Origin: Armatimonadota bacterium
GTDB lineage: Bacteria > Armatimonadota > Fimbriimonadia > Fimbriimonadales > Fimbriimonadaceae
Length of the DNA stretch: 64,000 nt
Reading direction: 5' to 3'
NCBI GenBank assembly: GCA_018268255.1
Contig: JAFDWX010000008.1
Span: 215,269-279,268, forward strand
Positions 36,923 through 40,740 of the stretch are shown one piece after another (within the stretch, counting starts at the first letter, position 1; each line of letters begins with the position of its first letter). Both the position numbers and the translations under genes were made by a program. A model generated the notes under the pieces. The model was not told the DNA's origin, made no database searches, and worked only from the letters and a program-made list of their open reading frames with translations.

Positions 36923-37237
36923 TTACAGTTGGAAAATTTGATCCAAGGGAAACCACTTTTGGTTTGGCGCGGCGAACGGGAGTCGCTGCTGGTAGGTCTC
37001 CATCAACGCTTCCCATTCGGCGACCCGAGCCGGAAGTTGGCCTGAATCCGTGGCCGCGCCGGTCGAGGATTCAAGGATCATAAAGAGCCGATTTCCGGCC
37101 CTGTAGATCTCACACGCCGTGATGCCAGAAGAACGTAAATGGGCCACAACTTCGGGCCAAACCGCCCGATGGTGGGCTTCGTATTCGGCGATCAGCACCG
37201 GATCATCCTTCAGGTCCAAGCAGAAGCAGGTCTTCAT
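36923..37237 (-). CDS. L-rhamnose/L-fucose mutarotase family protein (DUF718)
   Basis: 104 aa. The RhaM-like signature is MKTCFCLDLKDDPVLIAEYE ... HHRAVWPEVVAHLRSSGI, with the catalytic His before the AVWPE motif and the CEIYRAGNRLFMILES strand. It interconverts alpha and beta anomers of a deoxysugar. Its start codon abuts the stop codon of the kinase fusion upstream, so the two act on the same sugar pathway. Which 6-deoxysugar is used cannot be decided. Confidence 0.85.
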   Translation of the reverse strand: MKTCFCLDLKDDPVLIAEYEAHHRAVWPEVVAHLRSSGITACEIYRAGNRLFMILESSTGAATDSGQLPARVAEWEALMETYQQRLPFAAPNQKWFPLDQIFQL

Positions 37238-38385
37238 TAGATGGTGCCTCGTCGCCGGATTTTTATCCGAAGCGCTCCGGGGTAGGGTTCGGGTCGGACC
37301 AAAATCAGGTAGCCGCCTCCGCCTGCGCCACTCAACTTGTAACCGAGCGAGTGGGGACCGTGTTCCTTGATCGCATCTTCGATAAATGAATCCACCATGT
37401 ACGGAAACATCGCGACCTGAGCCTCAAAGGAGCGACGGAATGCATCACCAAAGGCTGCGGCATCTTTCGCCATGAGTGCATCCCATGCATCGTTGGCTGC
37501 ATCGGCAAGGCGCATGGCGTCGGCGGCATTTTCGCAGGTTTTGTCTAGAACCCTAAAGCCCGCCGACCTAGGGCTGAGTGGAACCAGATGGAGATGGCTT
37601 TCCAAGAAGGTTAGGATGGATTCGTCGTGGACCGACTCAATCTTGTCGGGCCAATATTGACCCTGGTAATGGAGTTTGTTCAAGCCGGGATAGACGATCC
37701 CGATGCTGTCCTGCGATCCGCTGATGTATTCGGAGCCTGGAGGATTTTCGCAGCAGAACAGCACCTTTGCAATAATTTCCAGATCCCCCGGGGGCAAGTG
37801 GGTGCGCCAAAGCTCGATCGCCTTCCGCCGTGTGCTGGTGCTCATCCCGCTGCGGTCATTGAAATCGTGGGTCGGCTCGATGCTGATGGTGATCATCGGG
37901 CCTGGATGGTGCTGGGAGACAAATGGCTGGTCCAGCCAACCTCCAGCGATATCGATTCGGTAGGGAATATGGCACTCCTGACGGAGAGCAGTGGTGCTGC
38001 GGGCCGTGAGGCCTTGGTGTGGCTCACGGGGAAGGACCACATACTCCACGCCGTAACTGGCGCATAGTGCGGCCTTTTCAGGAGTGTCACCGTCGTGGTT
38101 GACCACAAAGGTTTTCGGGCGAATCTCCGCCAATTCAGGTTCGAAGTCCAGATGCCCGCTTCCTCTGCTGATCCGCACCTCGGAAACGCTGCGGAGCGCT
38201 TCCAGCATGTATTTCCGCTCGTTCTGATTGGTGACGGGCCATCGATCCTTAAGATCCGAGACGGTTTGATCGCTACCGATGCAAACCACCACGTCGCCAT
38301 ACTCGCTTGCCGATTGGAGAAAGGCGATGTGGCCACTGTGGAGGAGGTCGAAACAGCCAGAAACCATCACCTTTGGGCGAACCAT
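37237..38385 (-). CDS. Fusion of a cytidylyltransferase-like domain and a GHMP-type sugar kinase
   Basis: 382 aa from ATG 38385. A TTG at 38409 is possible, and the Shine-Dalgarno site is poor for both. The N-terminus (about 1-130) is a nucleotidyltransferase of the HxGH class (SGCFDLLHSGHIAFLQSASE; H16-x2-H19). The rest resembles a GHMP kinase: PYRIDIAGGWLDQPFVSQ is the sugar-binding N-region, GSQDSIGIVYPGLNKLHY a substrate/ATP segment, and YKLSGAGGGGYLILV the glycine-rich motif 3. A bifunctional kinase/nucleotide-sugar enzyme is inferred, parallel in concept to the fucokinase/GDP-fucose pyrophosphorylase FKP but with different domain order. It is followed directly by the mutarotase gene. 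Confidence 0.75.
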   Translation of the reverse strand: MVRPKVMVSGCFDLLHSGHIAFLQSASEYGDVVVCIGSDQTVSDLKDRWPVTNQNERKYMLEALRSVSEVRISRGSGHLDFEPELAEIRPKTFVVNHDGDTPEKAALCASYGVEYVVLPREPHQGLTARSTTALRQECHIPYRIDIAGGWLDQPFVSQHHPGPMITISIEPTHDFNDRSGMSTSTRRKAIELWRTHLPPGDLEIIAKVLFCCENPPGSEYISGSQDSIGIVYPGLNKLHYQGQYWPDKIESVHDESILTFLESHLHLVPLSPRSAGFRVLDKTCENAADAMRLADAANDAWDALMAKDAAAFGDAFRRSFEAQVAMFPYMVDSFIEDAIKEHGPHSLGYKLSGAGGGGYLILVRPEPYPGALRIKIRRRGTI

Positions 38386-38640: not shown

Positions 38641-38671
38641 ATTTTTGGCTTGAAACCGTCTGATTTCGTTG

Positions 38672-39280
38672 ATGGCGGCCGAAGTTTTTCATCCTGTTAA
38701 CGATTTTCAGCAGTTTCCCAATCATCTCTTGGTCAAGCGGAAAATGCTTAAGCTGGTCGGTGGCCAGTATCACATCCATGACGCAGTGAACAACCGCGAG
38801 CTGGCGCTGGCAGTTCAGAAGGGCTTCAAGCTCAAAGAAGACATCCGAATCAGCATCAATGGGGTCGAGAAGTTCGGCATTTTTGCAAGAAAGGTCATCG
38901 ACTTTTCCGGCGTGTATGATGTGGTGGACCTAGAGACTCAGCCAAACACAGTGCTGGCGGTCTTCAAGCGAAAGGGTTGGAAAAGCGCATTTGTTCGAGA
39001 CGAGTGGATTGTTTGCGATGCCCAAGAGCGAGAGGTCGGCACGATGATCGAGGATTCGGTGGCTCTTGGCTTGATTAGGAGGTTCCTGACCAACATCATC
39101 CCGCAGAACTACGACTTTCTGGTAGGCGGTTCTCGGGTTGTGGACTTGCGGCAGAACTTCAACCCGTTCAACTATAACCTGAACGTGATCTACGAAATTG
39201 CGCCCGACAGAATGGACCGCCGGATCGCCATCGCGGGAGCCGTTCTTCTAGCCGCGATCGAAGGCCGTCAGCGTAATTAG
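38672..39280 (+). CDS. LURP-one-related / scramblase-like beta-barrel protein
   Basis: 202 aa from ATG 38672 (TTG at 38669 precedes it). The repeated beta-strand pattern (KRKMLKLVGGQYHIHDAVNN, LKEDIRISINGVEKFGIFAR, YDVVDLETQPNTVLAVFKRK, WIVCDAQEREVGTMIEDS) and a C-terminal hydrophobic segment (RIAIAGAVLLAAIE) resemble the LURP-one/Tubby-like fold. That family is widespread in bacteria without a defined role. No Shine-Dalgarno site is evident. Confidence 0.6.
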   Translation: MAAEVFHPVNDFQQFPNHLLVKRKMLKLVGGQYHIHDAVNNRELALAVQKGFKLKEDIRISINGVEKFGIFARKVIDFSGVYDVVDLETQPNTVLAVFKRKGWKSAFVRDEWIVCDAQEREVGTMIEDSVALGLIRRFLTNIIPQNYDFLVGGSRVVDLRQNFNPFNYNLNVIYEIAPDRMDRRIAIAGAVLLAAIEGRQRN

Positions 39281-39810: not shown

Positions 39811-40740
39811 TCATTTTGCGCATCGGAACTCGCAGTTCTGATCGATTTCCCACCTCAAATAACGAGCCACGAACCAGGTTCGACAGACCTTGATCTCCAT
39901 ATCCGCGGCCAATTCGGCGGAGTATTCGCCGTGGTCCTGGTGGTGCTTCTTTTGGGCCAAAAAGAGTTCGCCTAATTTTTGGCCTGCTTCGATTTCAGCC
40001 CAGTCCGGTGCTTCACCATGAAACGTCGCGATTCCCCAATGCCAAGGCCGATGCATATCGACAGCGTGCTGTGGACTCCAAACCCAGTTGTCTTCCGGAG
40101 TTTTGGGCCGCTTGGCATATTGCCCATCCACCACGTCAAGATGCCATTGGACCCTGCTGAAATTCAATCGTAGAGAACTCCCTTCAACAGGCGGAAGCTT
40201 CTGGTTAGAAACTTCCGCAAGAGCGGCCCAAGGCAGTGCGACCTCCACCCACCATCGTTGGTCATTGTCGCTCGGATCATTCAGGGTGCCCTCTAGGCGA
40301 ACGGCTGACCGCATTCCTTTGATCTCGTACCCGTTGATCGCCGGCCCTTCTGCCCAATAGGGGCGAGCCAGCAGCAGGTCCCACGTGGTGTTGAGGGCAT
40401 TGATTTCCAACTCCAGATAGCGTTGAAAATCACCGTCAGGGTCAATAAAGATCTCGAAGTCGTTGTCGTTGAAAATGACTGAGTCGTGCTCCGTCAGGGT
40501 CGCCCAGAGATGCGGCTCATCCAGTTCAGCCAAAAACAATAGGTCGGTGTCGGTCCAGGCAATTTTCACTCTTGTGCGGTGACGAGGCTTCGGACCTCGG
40601 GCCCCCAAAATGTCCATGAAATCGCTGGACCACGGTACTGGCTTCCAAAGAAGCTTCTCCGGATCGGCGTCAATGGTAACGGGTCCGGTGACTTTCCGCA
40701 CGCCCAAGTGGAGTGGACGGGGGATACTTACTTCATCCAC
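39811..40740 (-). CDS. Carbohydrate-binding family 9-like protein
   Basis: 309 aa without a signal peptide. The body matches the CBM9-like/DOMON-like sandwich: TRVKIAWTDTDLLFLAELDE, NDNDFEIFIDPDGDFQRYLE, LEINALNTTWDLLL, RWWVEVALPWAALAEV and LRLNFSRVQW. Such proteins bind saccharides at aromatic platforms. The absence of an export signal is unusual. Its start overlaps the 3' end of the beta-lactamase-fold gene by 13 nt. Confidence 0.8.
   Translation of the reverse strand: MDEVSIPRPLHLGVRKVTGPVTIDADPEKLLWKPVPWSSDFMDILGARGPKPRHRTRVKIAWTDTDLLFLAELDEPHLWATLTEHDSVIFNDNDFEIFIDPDGDFQRYLELEINALNTTWDLLLARPYWAEGPAINGYEIKGMRSAVRLEGTLNDPSDNDQRWWVEVALPWAALAEVSNQKLPPVEGSSLRLNFSRVQWHLDVVDGQYAKRPKTPEDNWVWSPQHAVDMHRPWHWGIATFHGEAPDWAEIEAGQKLGELFLAQKKHHQDHGEYSAELAADMEIKVCRTWFVARYLRWEIDQNCEFRCAK

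What the first reader, a model, noticed from the sequence alone, without database searches (positions are those of the whole stretch)
37237..38385. Nucleotidyltransferase-GHMP kinase fusion next to a deoxysugar mutarotase
One protein carries an HxGH cytidylyltransferase-like domain followed by a GHMP kinase-like domain with an SGAGGGG motif. Its stop abuts a RhaM/FucU-type mutarotase gene. This looks like a salvage route taking a free 6-deoxysugar through anomer conversion, C1 phosphorylation and nucleotide activation. It parallels FKP, but with reversed order and a different transferase family.
Basis: partly seen in the sequence, partly recalled or inferred. Interest (0 to 1): 0.5.

Follow-up and report, generated by a model that had tools for sequence, protein, structure and literature searches.

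The report
A second kind of fucose-recycling enzyme
A bacterial protein family that joins a sugar kinase to a nucleotide-attaching domain most likely turns free L-fucose into activated fucose, doing the job of the known enzyme FKP with an unrelated first half; this rests on neighbouring genes and conserved residues and has not been tested at the bench.

Summary
Window 38385-37237 (-) encodes 382 residues: an HxGH nucleotidyltransferase domain, then a short GHMP-kinase domain. Its stop overlaps by one base the start of a RhaM-like (PF05336) mutarotase gene.

Context points to L-fucose. Of 79 loci, 24 have a RhaM-like mutarotase (7 in the same polypeptide), 17 a FucP-type permease, 13 a GH29 fucosidase, 7 GDP-mannose dehydratase, 7 GDP-fucose synthase; 42 have none of these. 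FKP's fucose-contact residues (R592, W599, D601, Q761, D762) are kept in 31 of 31 relatives found without motif selection. FKP's own transferase domain is above cut-off in 0 of 52 fusion genomes.

Best reading: an FKP analogue, L-fucose to L-fucose-1-P to NDP-L-fucose, probably GDP. Sugar, nucleotide and phosphoryl donor are inferred. A split version beside GDP-mannose 3,5-epimerase suggests a GDP-L-galactose counterpart. New variant of a known kind.

The parts
37237..38385 (-). fusion gene, 382 aa: nucleotidyltransferase domain then GHMP-kinase domain
37978..38382 (-). HxGH nucleotidyltransferase domain (residues 2-136)
   Evidence: PF01467, TIGR02199; TagD 1coz Z 17.5, Fom1 CyTase 5x3d Z 16.9, HldC 5xf2 Z 15.6
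38329..38340 (-). HxGH motif, residues 16-19
   Evidence: in an unselected set of 31 relatives H16 is kept in 29, QxGH in 2
37240..37977 (-). short GHMP-kinase domain (residues 137-382)
   Evidence: PF08544; WcbL 4usm Z 22.7, FKP kinase 9iip Z 21.4 at 24% identity
37930..37965 (-). motif 1 PYRIDIAGGWLD (residues 141-152); R143, W150, D152 align with FKP R592, W599, D601
   Evidence: PMC11982464 section 8
37828..37851 (-). probable phosphate-binding motif 2 SGMSTSTR (residues 179-186), in place of GLGSS
   Evidence: my assignment: spacing to the catalytic Asp (46) close to FKP G717-D762 (45), and variants L183, L184 read GSGLSTST at this place
37708..37722 (-). SGSQD (residues 222-226); Q225 and D226 align with FKP Q761 and D762
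37312..37332 (-). motif 3 SGAGGGG (residues 352-358)
36923..37237 (-). RhaM-like (PF05336) mutarotase, 104 aa, start overlaps the fusion's stop by one base
   Evidence: 55% identical to the L070 and 36% to the L102 mutarotase, both near other fusions

Best explanation
The gene pair is an L-fucose salvage unit. The RhaM-like protein interconverts anomers of free L-fucose (inferred). The C-terminal GHMP domain phosphorylates C1 to give L-fucose-1-phosphate (inferred from fold and conserved fucose-contact residues). The N-terminal HxGH domain then transfers a nucleotide, most likely GMP from GTP, to give GDP-L-fucose (inferred from gene neighbours). It would do the job of FKP with an unrelated transferase domain and a much shorter kinase. 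Shown here: domain content, conservation, gene neighbourhood, and lack of an above-cut-off FKP transferase in the fusion genomes examined. Not shown: any activity, the sugar, the nucleotide, the phosphoryl donor. Split relatives beside GDP-mannose 3,5-epimerase may do the same for L-galactose.
For: (1) Neighbours, local tblastn over 79 GTDB loci: RhaM-like 24 (7 inside the same ORF; Pfam check on one of them, L067), FucP-type permease 17, GH29 13, GMD 7, GFS 7; 37 of 79 have at least one. The listed FucP hit (17 of 17), RhaM hit (24 of 24) and GFS hit (7 of 7) lie on the fusion's strand, GMD 6 of 7. Chance expectation in these flanks is 0.35 for RhaM, 0.19 for gmd and 0.75 for FucP. L095 reads GMD-GFS-fusion-RhaM, L102 RhaM-fusion-FucP-GMD-GFS; the L102 permease passes the fucP equivalog cut-off (323 over 280). 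(2) Residues that contact fucose in FKP are R143, W150, D152, Q225, D226 here; kept in 85 of 85 rows of A2 and in 31 of 31 relatives taken from a protein search, 9 of which match neither scan motif. (3) Kinase domain: FKP is the best PDB sequence match (8.8e-9), next heptose kinase 3k85 (0.026). (4) PF07959 (FKP transferase) above cut-off in 0 of 52 fusion genomes; in 247 genomes of one order, FKP in 17, fusion in 32, both in 0. (5) Own genome: gmd and a GFS-like gene side by side, 6 GH29 matches, no PF07959 match, no gmhA match at 1e-10.
Against: I know of no HxGH-family guanylyltransferase (recall), and the nearest solved relatives are cytidylyltransferases and HldC. Fold scores do not separate fucokinase from heptokinase: WcbL Z 22.7, FKP Z 21.4. 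FKP's T602 is replaced by Q153. W150 to G180 is 30 residues against 118 in FKP, so the nucleotide side of the kinase site must differ. Local hhalign against six FKPs covers only residues from SGSQD on; motif 1 aligns in phmmer and in forced global mode. FucP has no match at 1e-20 in any of 12 Armatimonadota genomes, this one included. 42 of 79 loci show none of the listed neighbours (many contigs are short). The exclusion test is weak: P 0.09 and 0.02, completeness of most genomes is not known, and 8 of the 52 have weak partial PF07959 matches below cut-off. In A2 all 77 GTDB rows contain the scan motif AGGW.DQ, so that part of its conservation is by construction.
Confidence: 0.66

Rival explanations
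1. Same L-fucose salvage, but the product is CDP-L-fucose or ADP-L-fucose rather than GDP-L-fucose.
For: The nearest solved relatives of the transferase domain are cytidylyltransferases (TagD, Fom1) and HldC (HldC's use of ATP is recalled).
Against: Neighbouring GMD, GFS and GDP-mannose 3,5-epimerase act on GDP-sugars. One full-text search found no paper holding the term CDP-fucose.
Confidence: 0.2
2. Heptose-1-phosphate kinase plus nucleotidyltransferase (HddA/WcbL-like joined to HldC-like) for ADP- or GDP-heptose.
For: WcbL is the top structural match (Z 22.7), rfaE_dom_II the best NCBIfam hit, and 45 of 60 genomes have a gmhA-type match at 1e-10, 11 above its cut-off.
Against: The rfaE_dom_II score is far below cut-off. 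Mutarotase, FucP, GH29, GMD and GFS neighbours are not heptose genes (heptose genes were not searched for in the flanks). Own genome and 14 other genomes have no gmhA match at 1e-10. The Trp that stacks on fucose in FKP is kept.
Confidence: 0.07
3. L-rhamnose salvage to an NDP-L-rhamnose.
For: The mutarotase is in the RhaM family; a GH106 rhamnosidase lies near the G148 copy.
Against: A solved L-fucose mutarotase (7byw) matches about as well as rhamnose mutarotases; the YiiL rhamnose equivalog score is 21.2 against a cut-off of 99.6; FucP, GH29, GMD and GFS are fucose genes.
Confidence: 0.06
4. The GHMP domain is no longer an ATP-dependent kinase (other donor or a binding role) and only the transferase is active.
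For: Motif 2 is SGM[SA][ST]S[TS]R instead of GLGSS and a segment before it is missing.
Against: Substrate Arg, Trp, Asp and catalytic Asp are kept in 31 of 31 unselected relatives, which is not what decay would leave.
Confidence: 0.08

Closest known systems
FKP, bifunctional L-fucokinase/GDP-fucose pyrophosphorylase (Bacteroides fragilis)
   Same: Transferase first, GHMP kinase second; fucose-contact residues; place in fucose metabolism
   Different: Transferase is HxGH type instead of PF07959; 382 aa instead of 949; 88 fewer residues between motif 1 Trp and motif 2 Gly; FKP transferase above cut-off in 0 of 52 fusion genomes
HldE domain II / HldC and TagD (HxGH nucleotidyltransferases)
   Same: Fold, HxGH and STT motifs of the N-terminal domain
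   Different: Fused to a GHMP kinase; below the rfaE_dom_II cut-off; invariant G75, G77, D80, G99 and near-invariant VN.D in this family
HddA/WcbL heptokinases
   Same: GHMP fold (Z 22.7)
   Different: Sequence closer to FKP than to heptose kinase 3k85; fucose-type gene neighbours
RhaM/YiiL rhamnose mutarotase and FucM-type L-fucose mutarotase
   Same: PF05336; weak matches to 7byw (L-fucose) and 1x8d, 2qlx (rhamnose) mutarotases
   Different: Below the YiiL equivalog cut-off; here paired or fused with the kinase-transferase

Membership tests
FKP family | N-terminal GDP-fucose pyrophosphorylase domain (PF07959) | tested here: not met
   not among the Pfam hits up to E=1; no match in the whole genome
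FKP family | C-terminal GHMP kinase with the fucose-contact residues | tested here: met
   R143, W150, D152, Q225, D226; T602 position is Q
FKP family | transferase N-terminal, kinase C-terminal | tested here: met
FKP family | makes GDP-L-fucose from L-fucose, ATP and GTP | not testable with these tools
   needs an enzyme assay
GHMP kinase superfamily | fold and C-terminal domain PF08544 | tested here: met
   21.9 bits, cut-off 21; Z up to 22.7 over 238-239 residues
GHMP kinase superfamily | classical motif 2 (GLGSS) / PF00288 N domain | tested here: not met
   no PF00288 hit up to E=1; motif is SGMSTSTR
HxGH cytidylyltransferase-like superfamily | HxGH and PF01467 | tested here: met
HldE domain II / HldC (TIGR02199) | equivalog score cut-off | tested here: not met
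   59.1 against 181.5 bits
RhaM mutarotase (PF05336) | family profile | tested here: met
   92.6 bits, cut-off 23.4
YiiL L-rhamnose mutarotase (TIGR02625) | equivalog score cut-off | tested here: not met
   21.2 against 99.6 bits

The most novel reading that the evidence does not exclude
An independently evolved bifunctional (in some Bacteroidota trifunctional, mutarotase-transferase-kinase) route from free L-fucose to GDP-L-fucose, using an HxGH-family guanylyltransferase and a minimal GHMP kinase; with a split Armatimonadota version that salvages L-galactose to GDP-L-galactose beside a bacterial GDP-mannose 3,5-epimerase.
Probability: 0.42. Interest if true: 0.72.

Novelty: new variant of a known kind. 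Interest (0 to 1): 0.6.

Why it matters
A 2025 phylogeny of FKPs (PMC12732313; abstract and section 4 read) favours one fusion of FUK and GFPP as the origin of all known bifunctional fucose-salvage enzymes. This family would be a second, separate origin with an unrelated transferase. In one Bacteroidales sample it is about twice as frequent as FKP (32 against 17 of 247), so annotation that looks only for FKP would miss fucose salvage there. It would also put a guanylyltransferase in a superfamily whose nearest solved members use other nucleotides. At 382 residues it is less than half the length of FKP, which is used to make GDP-fucose for fucosylated products.

Tried and rejected
FKP membership: rejected for the transferase half (no PF07959). 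Heptose route: held less likely, although 45 of 60 genomes have a gmhA-type match. Chance or artefact: rejected. Plasmids and phages: the whole protein finds 25 plasmid records, and the 20 rows listed all lie in the transferase half; the kinase domain finds none among phage or plasmid records. A single-protein viral scan found nothing; the alignment found 8 viral contigs.

Compositional sign of recent transfer: looked for, not found. GC 0.57 and third-position GC 0.66 are like neighbouring genes, although the gene is missing from two same-genus genomes and the tree puts it beside sequences titled Flavobacteriales or Bacteroidetes.

Conservation bias: the GTDB scan used the motifs AGGW.DQ and SGSQD as search patterns, so I took 31 further relatives from the protein search and checked them.

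Literature searches (open-access library only) showed no paper on this fusion in the listings; I read parts of three papers only (PMC11982464, PMC12732313, PMC11199699).

Full report
What is there. Window 38385-37237 (-) is a 382-residue ORF. Residues 2-136 are an HxGH nucleotidyltransferase domain (PF01467, 1.5e-10) and residues 137-382 a GHMP-type domain (PF08544, 21.9 bits, cut-off 21). The stop overlaps by one base the start of a 104-residue PF05336 (RhaM-like) mutarotase gene at 36923-37237. Each is found once in the genome. The next two genes (flavoprotein; epimerase with DUF1731) have no evident link.

Distribution. In a search of 61 genomes (own included) no other full fusion was found, only transferase-domain matches and one weak kinase-side match. 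In 291 genomes of the phylum at E 1e-12, fusions occur in G000, G148, G065 and G149 (the last cut by a contig end). In families f12 (G088, G089, G090, G092, G093) and f30 (G213, G216) kinase and transferase are separate genes; in the loci I translated (L047-L050) the transferase is two tandem copies, the first without HxGH. G134 also has a separate kinase, the next gene being cut by the contig end. In 77 of these 80 an HxGH transferase and the kinase share one ORF; the other three (L068, L097, L124) run off a contig end. The 80 are the closest relatives and were found by motif patterns, so they are not a random sample.

Neighbours. Local tblastn, with seeds taken from the loci themselves, over 79 of the 80 loci (L053 left out, being G148): RhaM-like 24, 7 of them inside the same ORF (L063, L067, L071, L074, L105, L115, L116); FucP-type 17; GH29 13; GMD 7; GFS 7; class II aldolase 4; GDP-mannose 3,5-epimerase 2, both seeds; FucU 0. 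37 of 79 have at least one of these (aldolase not counted); 42 have none. A seed counts as a hit in its own locus. Using genome-wide matches in 48 of these genomes (66 RhaM, 36 gmd, 139 FucP pieces), chance would give 0.35, 0.19 and 0.75 in these flanks. L102 reads RhaM, fusion, FucP, GMD, GFS; L095 reads GMD, GFS, fusion, RhaM. The L102 permease passes the fucP cut-off; the L095 synthase scores 492 on the GDP-L-fucose synthase model, just under its cut-off of 500.

Own genome. gmd (590 bits, over cut-off) and a GDP-fucose-synthase-like gene (431 bits, cut-off 500) lie side by side near C8:340-342 kb. There are six GH29 matches, no PF07959 match, no FucP match at 1e-20 and no gmhA match at 1e-10. 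Two same-genus genomes without the fusion have one and zero GH29 matches.

Active site. In FKP, fucose is contacted by R592, W599, D601, T602, Q761 and D762; W599A and D601A lose more than 3000-fold in kcat/Km, E751A and D762A are inactive (PMC11982464, section 8 read). phmmer aligns FKP 590-619 with the window's motif 1 without gaps. hhalign with six FKPs aligns GGWQD with SGSQD; motif 1 is included only in forced global mode (probability 99.3; local mode 97.8, from SGSQD on). R143, W150, D152, Q225 and D226 are invariant in the 85 rows of A2. That set is partly motif-selected: all 77 GTDB rows contain AGGW.DQ. So 31 relatives from the protein search were checked: the five residues are kept in 31 of 31 (30; L182 misread there, right), and 9 of the 31 match neither scan motif. 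H16 is kept in 29 of 31. Q153 stands where FKP has T602; in two variants it is V. Position 213, a possible equivalent of E751, is E (72) or D (13) in A2. I assign motif 2 to SGMSTSTR: G180-D226 is 46 residues against 45 for FKP G717-D762, and variants L183 and L184 read GSGLSTST there; hhalign did not align it. W150-G180 is 30 residues against 118 in FKP. From recall, the missing segment helps bind adenine in other GHMP kinases, so the phosphoryl donor is an open question.

Structure. AlphaFold2 on A2: mean pLDDT 90.4, pTM 0.68. Kinase: WcbL heptokinase Z 22.7 (18% identity), FKP kinase Z 21.4 (24%); transferase: TagD 17.5, Fom1 CyTase 16.9, HldC 15.6. Folds do not fix the substrate.

Exclusion with FKP. 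Of 60 genomes chosen from the loci, PF07959 is above cut-off in 0 of 52 with the fusion and 2 of 8 with the split type (G092, G093); 8 fusion genomes have weak partial matches below cut-off. In 247 genomes of the order of G299 (titled Bacteroidales): FKP 17, fusion or its 35% variant 32, overlap 0 where 2.2 are expected (P 0.09). For 0 of 52 at that background P is 0.02. Completeness of these genomes is not told. Suggestive, not strong.

Split version. L047 and L051 read LacI-like (by eye), epimerase, kinase, tandem transferase, RbsD/FucU, ManC-like; L049 is similar and L048 partly so. The L047 epimerase is closest to GDP-mannose 3,5-epimerase (269 bits; next family 96), as is the one beside the L088 fusion (261 against 95). 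That enzyme makes GDP-L-galactose (established knowledge), so the pair has both GDP-L-fucose and GDP-L-galactose enzymes as neighbours. Against a firm label, the L051 RbsD/FucU gene passes the D-ribose pyranase cut-off (102.8 over 93).

Evolution. The window sequence and G148 form a clade (97/86), sister to five Bacteroidota sequences (100/99), in line with transfer between phyla; composition gives no sign of recency.

Prior knowledge. PMC12732313 (abstract and section 4 read; a term search for cytidyl, nucleotidyl, mutarotase, Armatimonad, non-homologous and convergent gave 0 hits in the main text) favours one fusion event for all known FKPs. The protein passes no NCBIfam equivalog cut-off. 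The nine literature searches named in Tried and rejected listed no paper on this fusion.

Noticed in passing
L134, L138, L139 (viral contigs): The fusion gene sits between the same two neighbouring gene clusters in three contigs; the downstream one in L139 is a phage portal protein (PF04860, 366 bits). Fucose-contact and HxGH residues are kept, so some phages may carry fucose activation. In 50,697 phage records only one short transferase-domain match was found.
   Followed up: partly
L047:6943-11395, L051, L049, L048: Armatimonadota cluster: GDP-mannose 3,5-epimerase, short GHMP kinase, tandem transferase, RbsD/FucU, ManC-like; possible bacterial GDP-L-galactose route.
   Followed up: partly
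L144:7165-8514 and L145:6942-8291 (L183, L184): 35%-identical variant of about 450 residues with an N-terminal extension in two genomes of the sampled order; QxGH instead of HxGH and GSGLSTST at motif 2; may act on another sugar.
   Followed up: partly
L047:8876-9697: Tandem nucleotidyltransferase whose first copy lacks HxGH and looks degenerate.
   Followed up: no
L043:4070-7312: GH106 alpha-L-rhamnosidase (647 bits) near the G148 fusion and its mutarotase.
   Followed up: no
window 38669-39280 and 39811-40740: Two neighbouring ORFs without any Pfam match at 1e-5.
   Followed up: no
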